Below, piece after piece: positions 19,783-19,950 of a stretch of DNA of 64,000 bases. The stretch is from Agrobacterium vitis (GTDB taxonomy: Bacteria > Pseudomonadota > Alphaproteobacteria > Rhizobiales > Rhizobiaceae): positions 62,001 through 126,000 of the forward strand of contig NZ_CP118263.1 of assembly GCF_013337045.2 (NCBI RefSeq). The letters run 5' to 3'. The translations under genes were made by a program, and so were the position numbers. The first letter of the stretch is position 1, and every line of letters begins with the position of its first letter. Under the pieces are notes generated by a model that was not told where the DNA came from, did not search any database, and worked only from the letters and a program-made list of their open reading frames with translations.

Positions 19783-19950
19783 ATGAGATATTGTCTGCTC
19801 TTTCTGATCCTCGGCCTGGCGTCTTGTCAATCACATGACCAGTTGGCGAGCCCCAAGGGGCCCATATTCCCGCTGAACGTCGGGCGATGGCAGCCTGCTC
19901 AGCCGGACCTTCAGCCTGGAAACGCGGGAGGAGCAAATGAAGGACCCTGA
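19783..19950 (+). CDS. virB7: VirB7, outer-membrane lipoprotein lacking Cys24
   Basis: This 55-residue lipoprotein has a lipobox LASC with the acylated Cys15. It keeps the conserved core KGPIFPLNVGRWQP. In well-studied VirB7, Cys24 forms a disulfide with VirB9 Cys262 that stabilises the outer-membrane core complex. Here codon 24 is CCC, proline (QLASPKGP), and no other cysteine remains in the mature protein besides the lipidated one. GGAGG precedes the ATG. The gene overlaps virB8 by 14 bases. Confidence 0.94.
   Translation: MRYCLLFLILGLASCQSHDQLASPKGPIFPLNVGRWQPAQPDLQPGNAGGANEGP

What the first reader, a model, noticed from the sequence alone, without database searches (positions are those of the whole stretch)
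19783..19950. VirB7 has lost the disulfide cysteine (C24P) while VirB9 keeps Cys262
In the studied system VirB7 Cys24 and VirB9 Cys262 form an intermolecular disulfide that stabilises both. Here VirB7 codon 24 is CCC (SPKGP), and its only other cysteines are Cys4 in the signal peptide and the lipidated Cys15. VirB9 still ends HTVLCIWNKAYD with the Cys at exactly 262. The core complex must hold without this bond, or VirB9 must pair otherwise, for example with itself.
Basis: partly seen in the sequence, partly recalled or inferred. Interest (0 to 1): 0.72.

Follow-up and report, generated by a model that had tools for sequence, protein, structure and literature searches.

The report
Ti-plasmid VirB7 lacking its disulfide cysteine
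In one family of Ti plasmids a small protein of the DNA-injection machine has lost the cysteine that normally bonds it to its partner, and comparison with relatives shows that this bond has been dropped several times, so it looks like an optional reinforcement rather than a requirement.

Summary
VirB7 (19783-19950) has CCC (Pro) at codon 24 and no mature cysteine except the lipobox Cys15. VirB9 (20647-21528) keeps Cys262, its only cysteine outside the signal peptide. It is not a sequencing error: 6 plasmid records and 2 genome assemblies carry the same VirB7. Of 63 VirB7/VirB9 pairs read, 42 have both cysteines, 9 lost Cys24 but keep Cys262 (6 Pro, 3 Ser), 10 keep Cys24 but lost Cys262, and 2 lack both. 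On trees built without VirB7 and without residue 262, Cys24 changed three separate times within Ti plasmids, and a single origin is rejected. No replacement cysteine was found in the mature parts of VirB1-3 and VirB5-10. Residue 262 is small in 118 of 120 VirB9 relatives, so Cys262 can stay unpaired. Best explanation: the disulfide is an optional latch and the core complex is held by the conserved non-covalent VirB7 docking segment. A VirB9-VirB9 bond is untested and has no positive evidence. That the bond is missing from most other T4SSs is in print (PMC2653234); its repeated loss inside Ti plasmids I did not find described.

The parts
14319..23717 (+). virB1-virB11 operon of a Ti plasmid
   Evidence: ORFs; Pfam and NCBIfam matches; same gene order annotated in near-identical plasmids
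19783..19950 (+). virB7, 55 aa lipoprotein of the outer-membrane core complex
   Evidence: NF010433 107.4 bits against a cut-off of 60; PF17413 66.2 against 25
19825..19827 (+). VirB7 Cys15, lipobox cysteine (lipidation inferred)
   Evidence: Cys in 63 of 64 aligned rows, the exception L062 being a spurious row without a virB9
19852..19854 (+). VirB7 codon 24, CCC (Pro), at the place of the disulfide cysteine of C58- and octopine-type Ti plasmids
19870..19878 (+). VirB7 residues 30-32 (PLN), counterpart of the P[ILV]NK docking motif; intact
   Evidence: motif described in PMC2653234 (passages); the equation of PLN with that motif is my inference
20647..21528 (+). virB9, 293 aa, partner of VirB7
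   Evidence: NF010435 543.3 bits against 255 and TIGR02781 227.8 against 217.7
21430..21432 (+). VirB9 Cys262, left without its VirB7 partner
21657..21659 (+). VirB10 residue 45 (Gly), in the hydrophobic segment near the N-terminus; candidate correlated change
   Evidence: not significant against control triples

Best explanation
In this Ti-plasmid lineage VirB7 lost Cys24 by ordinary substitution, so the VirB7-VirB9 disulfide, and the VirB7-VirB7 disulfide reported through the same residue, cannot form. The outer-membrane core complex is held by the non-covalent fit of the lipid-anchored VirB7 tail, whose docking segment is intact, on the C-terminal domain of VirB9. VirB9 Cys262 remains as an unpaired small residue in that domain. 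The bond is an optional latch that Ti plasmids have dropped three times in the sample read. Shown: the sequence states, the recurrence, the absence of a replacement cysteine in the proteins scanned, and the small-residue constraint at 262. Inferred: that the complex works normally without the bond, that Cys262 is a free thiol, and that the changes were losses and not gains.
For: Three separate changes at residue 24 with different codons (CCC, AGT, TCC) and Cys262 kept each time (single origin rejected, p-AU 1.3e-6 for the window lineage with the pTiS4 type, 1.3e-54 for all three lineages). No new cysteine in mature VirB1-3 or VirB5-10. VirB7 segment around residues 26-43 conserved. virB7 dN/dS 0.20-0.26 against relatives, so the gene is under constraint. 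Residue 262 is Cys, Ala, Gly or Ser in 118 of 120 VirB9 relatives, Ala in TrwF and Gly in TraO (alignments). [quoted passage not shown] PMC3093366 (passages): Xanthomonas VirB7 has no cysteine besides the lipidation site. PMC8554961 (passages): tumours induced by S4, whose VirB7 has Ser24 (L038).
Against: From recall, not from a call: laboratory exchange of Cys24 in the octopine Ti system was reported in 1996 to destabilise VirB proteins; the papers are not held. In PMC10745273 the gall-forming isolates whose vir regions match Pro24 plasmids are said to lack VirB7, VirB8 and VirB9 sequences, so the functional evidence for Pro24 itself is indirect. Cys24 is kept in 27 of 30 distinct Rhizobiales VirB7 sequences, so it has some value. 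A correlated VirB10 change could mean that compensation is needed.
Confidence: 0.75

Rival explanations
1. Cys262 of VirB9 subunits pair with each other, replacing the bond with VirB7.
For: Cys262 is kept in 9 of 9 loci that lost Cys24 and still have a Ti-type VirB9 of Rhizobiales. No other mature VirB9 cysteine exists in any of the 63 Cys262 rows.
Against: Retention is expected anyway: the stem of the Pro24 clade is 0.081 changes per column, and the place takes small residues. No distance between VirB9 subunits could be measured, as structure prediction never ran.
Confidence: 0.07
2. Cys262 pairs with a cysteine of another protein outside the set scanned, or carries a small-molecule thiol.
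For: Not excluded: VirB4, VirB11, VirD4 and chromosomal periplasmic proteins were not scanned.
Against: No lineage-specific cysteine in mature VirB1-3 or VirB5-10; VirB10 Cys188 and Cys204 are Cys in 65 of 65 rows and VirB1 Cys35 and Cys116 in 57 of 57, so they look like fixed pairs of their own (the pairing is inferred).
Confidence: 0.06
3. The bond is needed, and its loss was made good by other changes, such as Ser to Gly at VirB10 residue 45.
For: VirB10 residue 45 is Gly in the three Cys24-loss lineages (8 of 9 loci; the ninth, L058, has a cut frame) and Ser in all their sisters.
Against: 3 of 23 control triples show a column of the same kind. Gly45 also occurs in 10 of 42 Cys24/Cys262 loci, outside the Ti/Ri sisters. 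Sign test on 3 independent pairs: median p 0.25.
Confidence: 0.09
4. The T4SS of this plasmid is decaying and the loss is part of that.
For: None found beyond the substitution itself.
Against: VirB1-3 and VirB5-10 frames are open, VirB4 and VirB11 ORFs are present at 811 and 344 aa, virB5-virB10 dN/dS against relatives is 0.06-0.26, and 8 other records share the same VirB7.
Confidence: 0.03

Closest known systems
VirB7-VirB9 of C58- and octopine-type Ti plasmids (VirB/VirD4 T4SS of Agrobacterium)
   Same: Same genes, same order, same VirB7 docking segment, same VirB9 with Cys262
   Different: VirB7 Pro24 in place of Cys24, so the known disulfide cannot form
VirB of pTiS4 / pTiCG78 (Ser24) and pTiQ15/94 (Ser24)
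   Same: Cys24 lost, Cys262 kept
   Different: Independent losses, with Ser (AGT and TCC) in place of Pro
Rhizobial VirB clade (L025, L026, L050-L053, L055, L060, L065, L066)
   Different: Opposite half lost: Cys24 kept, VirB9 262 is Gly or Ser, and VirB7 has gained Cys47 in 10 of 10
TrwF (R388) and TraO (pKM101), VirB9 homologues with solved structures
   Same: Homologous C-terminal domain
   Different: Ala and Gly at the place of Cys262; no such disulfide

Membership tests
VirB7 lipoprotein of the VirB/VirD4 T4SS | Scores above the curated family cut-offs | tested here: met
   NF010433 107.4 bits against 60; PF17413 66.2 against 25
VirB7 lipoprotein of the VirB/VirD4 T4SS | Signal peptide with lipobox cysteine | tested here: met
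   Cys15 aligned in all 19 sequences of A1 and in 63 of 64 rows; judged from sequence alone
VirB7 lipoprotein of the VirB/VirD4 T4SS | Lipid attachment and outer-membrane location | not testable with these tools
   Needs biochemistry
VirB9 | Scores above the curated family cut-offs | tested here: met
   NF010435 543.3 against 255; TIGR02781 227.8 against 217.7
Disulfide-linked VirB7-VirB9 pair (C58/octopine type) | VirB7 Cys24 | tested here: not met
   Codon 24 is CCC
Disulfide-linked VirB7-VirB9 pair (C58/octopine type) | VirB9 Cys262 | tested here: met
Disulfide-linked VirB7-VirB9 pair (C58/octopine type) | A replacement cysteine elsewhere in mature VirB7 | tested here: not met
   Only Cys4 (signal peptide) and Cys15

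The most novel reading that the evidence does not exclude
The VirB7-VirB9 disulfide is a dispensable redox latch that has been broken from either side in Ti-plasmid and rhizobial VirB systems: Cys24 discarded three times in Ti plasmids, Cys262 discarded once in a rhizobial clade, where the remaining Cys24 was rewired into a bond with the gained VirB7 Cys47, within one VirB7 or between two; and losing Cys24 goes with a change in the VirB10 hydrophobic segment at residue 45.
Probability: 0.22. Interest if true: 0.5.

Novelty: new variant of a known kind. Interest (0 to 1): 0.36.

Why it matters
The VirB7-VirB9 disulfide is a classic feature of the Agrobacterium model T4SS. Natural Ti plasmids that lost one half of it, three times independently, give unaltered strains in which to ask what the bond does (assembly, stability, redox sensing). 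They also warn against reading the C58/octopine disulfide as a general requirement of core-complex assembly.

Tried and rejected
Sequencing error: rejected. A relocated cysteine in VirB7, or a new one in mature VirB1-3 or VirB5-10: none in the window lineage (VirB4 and VirB11 were not scanned for cysteines). Second virB7 in the genome: none found. Relaxed selection on virB7 in this lineage: not seen. A solved Ti-type VirB7: no match for the single sequence, and 4 matches at E 0.036-1.2 for a profile, along the signal peptide (three alignments printed). More VirB7/VirB9 pairs from whole genomes: 4 of 394 family genomes besides the own one, none besides the own one among 385 class genomes and 397 order genomes. 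Protein-database search with VirB7: only 4 proteins, itself included. VirB10-45 as a compensating site: suggestive, not significant. VirB9 structure prediction: never ran, so no burial or subunit distance was measured.

Rows dropped before counts: one search took 66 sources (65 loci and the window; L001 and L002, short own-genome loci, were left out beforehand). L062 had no VirB9 and was dropped, leaving 65; L027 and L030 hold no virB7, leaving 63 pairs. The first tree used 51 distinct rows of the 63 that have VirB6, 8, 9 and 10; the second left out L056, L028, L029, L031, L033, L057 and L058, leaving 44. The loci were picked for diversity, so the counts are not frequencies in nature. Of the 5 pTiS4-like plasmid records (73.6% identity), I read the DNA of 2.

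Full report
What is there. The window is part of a Ti plasmid (contig 5 of a 6.08 Mb genome in 5 contigs) with virA, virB1-virB11 and virG in the usual order (near-identical annotated plasmids pAvCG412 and pTi_CFBP2407). virB7 (19783-19950) encodes 55 residues and codon 24 is CCC, proline. Its cysteines are Cys4, in the signal peptide, and Cys15, the lipobox cysteine. virB9 (20647-21528) has cysteines 11 (signal peptide) and 262.

Not an artefact. tblastn of VirB7 against 72,556 plasmid records finds 217 records, 6 of them at 100% identity. Two A. vitis draft genomes, CG118 and NCPPB 3554, carry the same VirB7 (L003, L005). One carrier, pTiCA74/95 (L035), differs by one synonymous change in virB7 and 18 nucleotides in virB9, so it is a separate line with the same Pro24.

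How it is spread. I read codon 24 of virB7 and residue 262 of VirB9 in 65 sources that have a virB9; two of them hold no virB7, leaving 63 pairs. Written as residue 24 / residue 262: Cys/Cys 42, Cys/Gly 9, Pro/Cys 6, Ser/Cys 3, Cys/Ser 1, Pro/Ala 1, Ala/Arg 1. As distinct protein pairs there are 43: 26, 9, 3, 2, 1, 1, 1. Among 30 distinct Rhizobiales VirB7 sequences residue 24 is Cys 27, Ser 2, Pro 1. The loci were picked for diversity, so these are not frequencies in nature. As a yardstick, 90 of 203 plasmid records with a VirB7 relative carry a VirB7 at least 99% identical to the C58 type, which has Cys24; the pTiQ15/94 form was found in 1 record.

Independent changes. A maximum-likelihood tree of VirB6, VirB8, VirB9 (without column 262) and VirB10 puts the Pro24 rows in one clade (100/100), the pTiS4 type among Cys24 plasmids (pRi1724, the pRi2659 type, A. 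larrymoorei), and pTiQ15/94 among C58- and pRiA4-like plasmids (5 changes at residue 24, 3 at residue 262, distant rows included). Without the distant rows residue 24 needs 3 changes, all forced by starred branches, and residue 262 one; holding the loss rows together is rejected (p-AU 1.3e-6 for the window lineage with the pTiS4 type, 1.3e-54 for all three). The codons agree with separate events: CCC, AGT and TCC, against TGT in the Cys24 members of the window's own clade and mostly TGC elsewhere. Change counts alone do not give direction. Cys24 or its aligned counterpart in Bradyrhizobium, Sinorhizobium and Acetobacteraceae plasmids makes loss the simpler reading.

The opposite half. Ten loci, one clade (100/100), all rhizobial, keep Cys24 but have Gly (9) or Ser (1) at VirB9 262. 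All ten, and none of the other 53 pairs, have a further mature VirB7 cysteine, Cys47. This suggests a partner switch, Cys24-Cys47, within or between VirB7 molecules. It is one evolutionary event and untested.

Why Cys262 may stay. In the 120 best of 306 VirB9 relatives (the window's own counted), residue 262 is Cys 63, Ala 40, Gly 9, Ser 6, Arg 2; it is Ala in TrwF and Gly in TraO (my reading of the alignments). So the place takes small residues. The stem of the Pro24 clade is 0.081 changes per column, so keeping a cysteine over that span needs no special reason, and its retention in 9 of 9 Cys24-loss loci of Rhizobiales is no evidence for a new partner.

No replacement found. All cysteine columns of VirB1, 2, 3 and 5-10 were listed. 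What the window lineage has and its Cys24 sisters lack or mostly lack is VirB7 Cys4 and VirB2 Cys3 and Cys15, which lie in leader parts (VirB2 processing is recalled). VirB8 has none in the window. VirB10 Cys188 and Cys204 are Cys in 65 of 65 rows. VirB4, VirB11 and VirD4 were not scanned.

Selection. virB7 dN/dS between the window and pRi2659, AB2/73 and S4 is 0.20, 0.26 and 0.23; between Cys24-bearing relatives (pRi2659 with AB2/73, with A. larrymoorei) 0.24 and 0.46; virB5, 6, 8, 9 and 10 lie at 0.06-0.14 in the three window comparisons. VirB7 changes faster than its neighbours but is constrained, and not less so in this lineage.

A possible correlated change. A scan for columns that differ from the sister sets in all three loss lineages gave only VirB7-24 and VirB10-45, the latter Gly in all three against Ser in every sister. 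Of 23 control triples of lineages, 3 gave a column with one shared new residue. Gly45 also occurs in 10 of the 42 Cys24/Cys262 loci, outside the Ti/Ri sisters, and the sign test on 3 independent pairs has a median p of 0.25. I treat it as a lead only.

Function. PMC8554961 (passages read) mentions tumours induced by strain S4; pTiS4 has Ser24 (L038). In PMC10745273 (abstract, outline, section 8 and passages read) isolates CG1-CG3, whose vir regions are given as 100% homologous to pTiAg57 and pTiK309, caused galls on grapevine plantlets. [quoted passage not shown] Since L058 (pTiAg57) and L005 (NCPPB 3554, called K309 there) both hold virB7-virB9 with Pro24, I suspect gaps or missed orthologues, but cannot show it. 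I saw no virulence data for pTiQ15/94.

Known background. [quoted passage not shown] PMC3093366 (passages) states that A. tumefaciens VirB7 dimerises through disulfides involving residue 24, that the outer-membrane complex structure does not allow these bonds in the assembled T4SS, and that Xanthomonas VirB7 has no cysteine besides the lipidation site. The 1996-97 primary papers are not held and were seen as references only; their mutant phenotypes are recalled. Searches combining VirB7 with VirB9, disulfide, heterodimer, cysteine, C24S, A. vitis and Ti plasmid listed no paper whose title or abstract start deals with Cys24 loss within Ti plasmids, in a library that lacks most subscription papers; I did not read all the papers listed.

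Verdict. A real, lineage-wide and recurrent loss of a known disulfide that looks optional. It is a natural variant of a known machine, useful for testing what the bond does, and of modest surprise because distant T4SSs do without it.

Noticed in passing
L025, L026, L050-L053, L055, L060, L065, L066 (virB7 and virB9): Rhizobial VirB clade in which VirB9 Cys262 is replaced by Gly or Ser while VirB7 keeps Cys24 and has gained Cys47, in 10 of 10 loci: a possible disulfide partner switch.
   Followed up: partly
21657-21659 (VirB10 codon 45): VirB10 residue 45 is Gly in the three Cys24-loss Ti lineages and Ser in their Cys24 sisters; 3 of 23 control triples show a similar pattern.
   Followed up: partly
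L058 (pTiAg57 record, virB10): The virB10 frame found in this record is cut short (720 against 1122 bases), and virB4, virB10, virB11 and virG are missing from its gene table; either errors in the record or real breaks.
   Followed up: no
L028 (Acetobacteraceae MAG): VirB7 has Pro and VirB9 has Ala at the aligned places of Cys24 and Cys262: both halves of the bond absent in a distant relative.
   Followed up: partly
PMC10745273 against L005 and L058: The paper reports VirB7-VirB9 missing from virulent A. vitis isolates although their vir regions are said to match plasmids that do carry these genes.
   Followed up: partly
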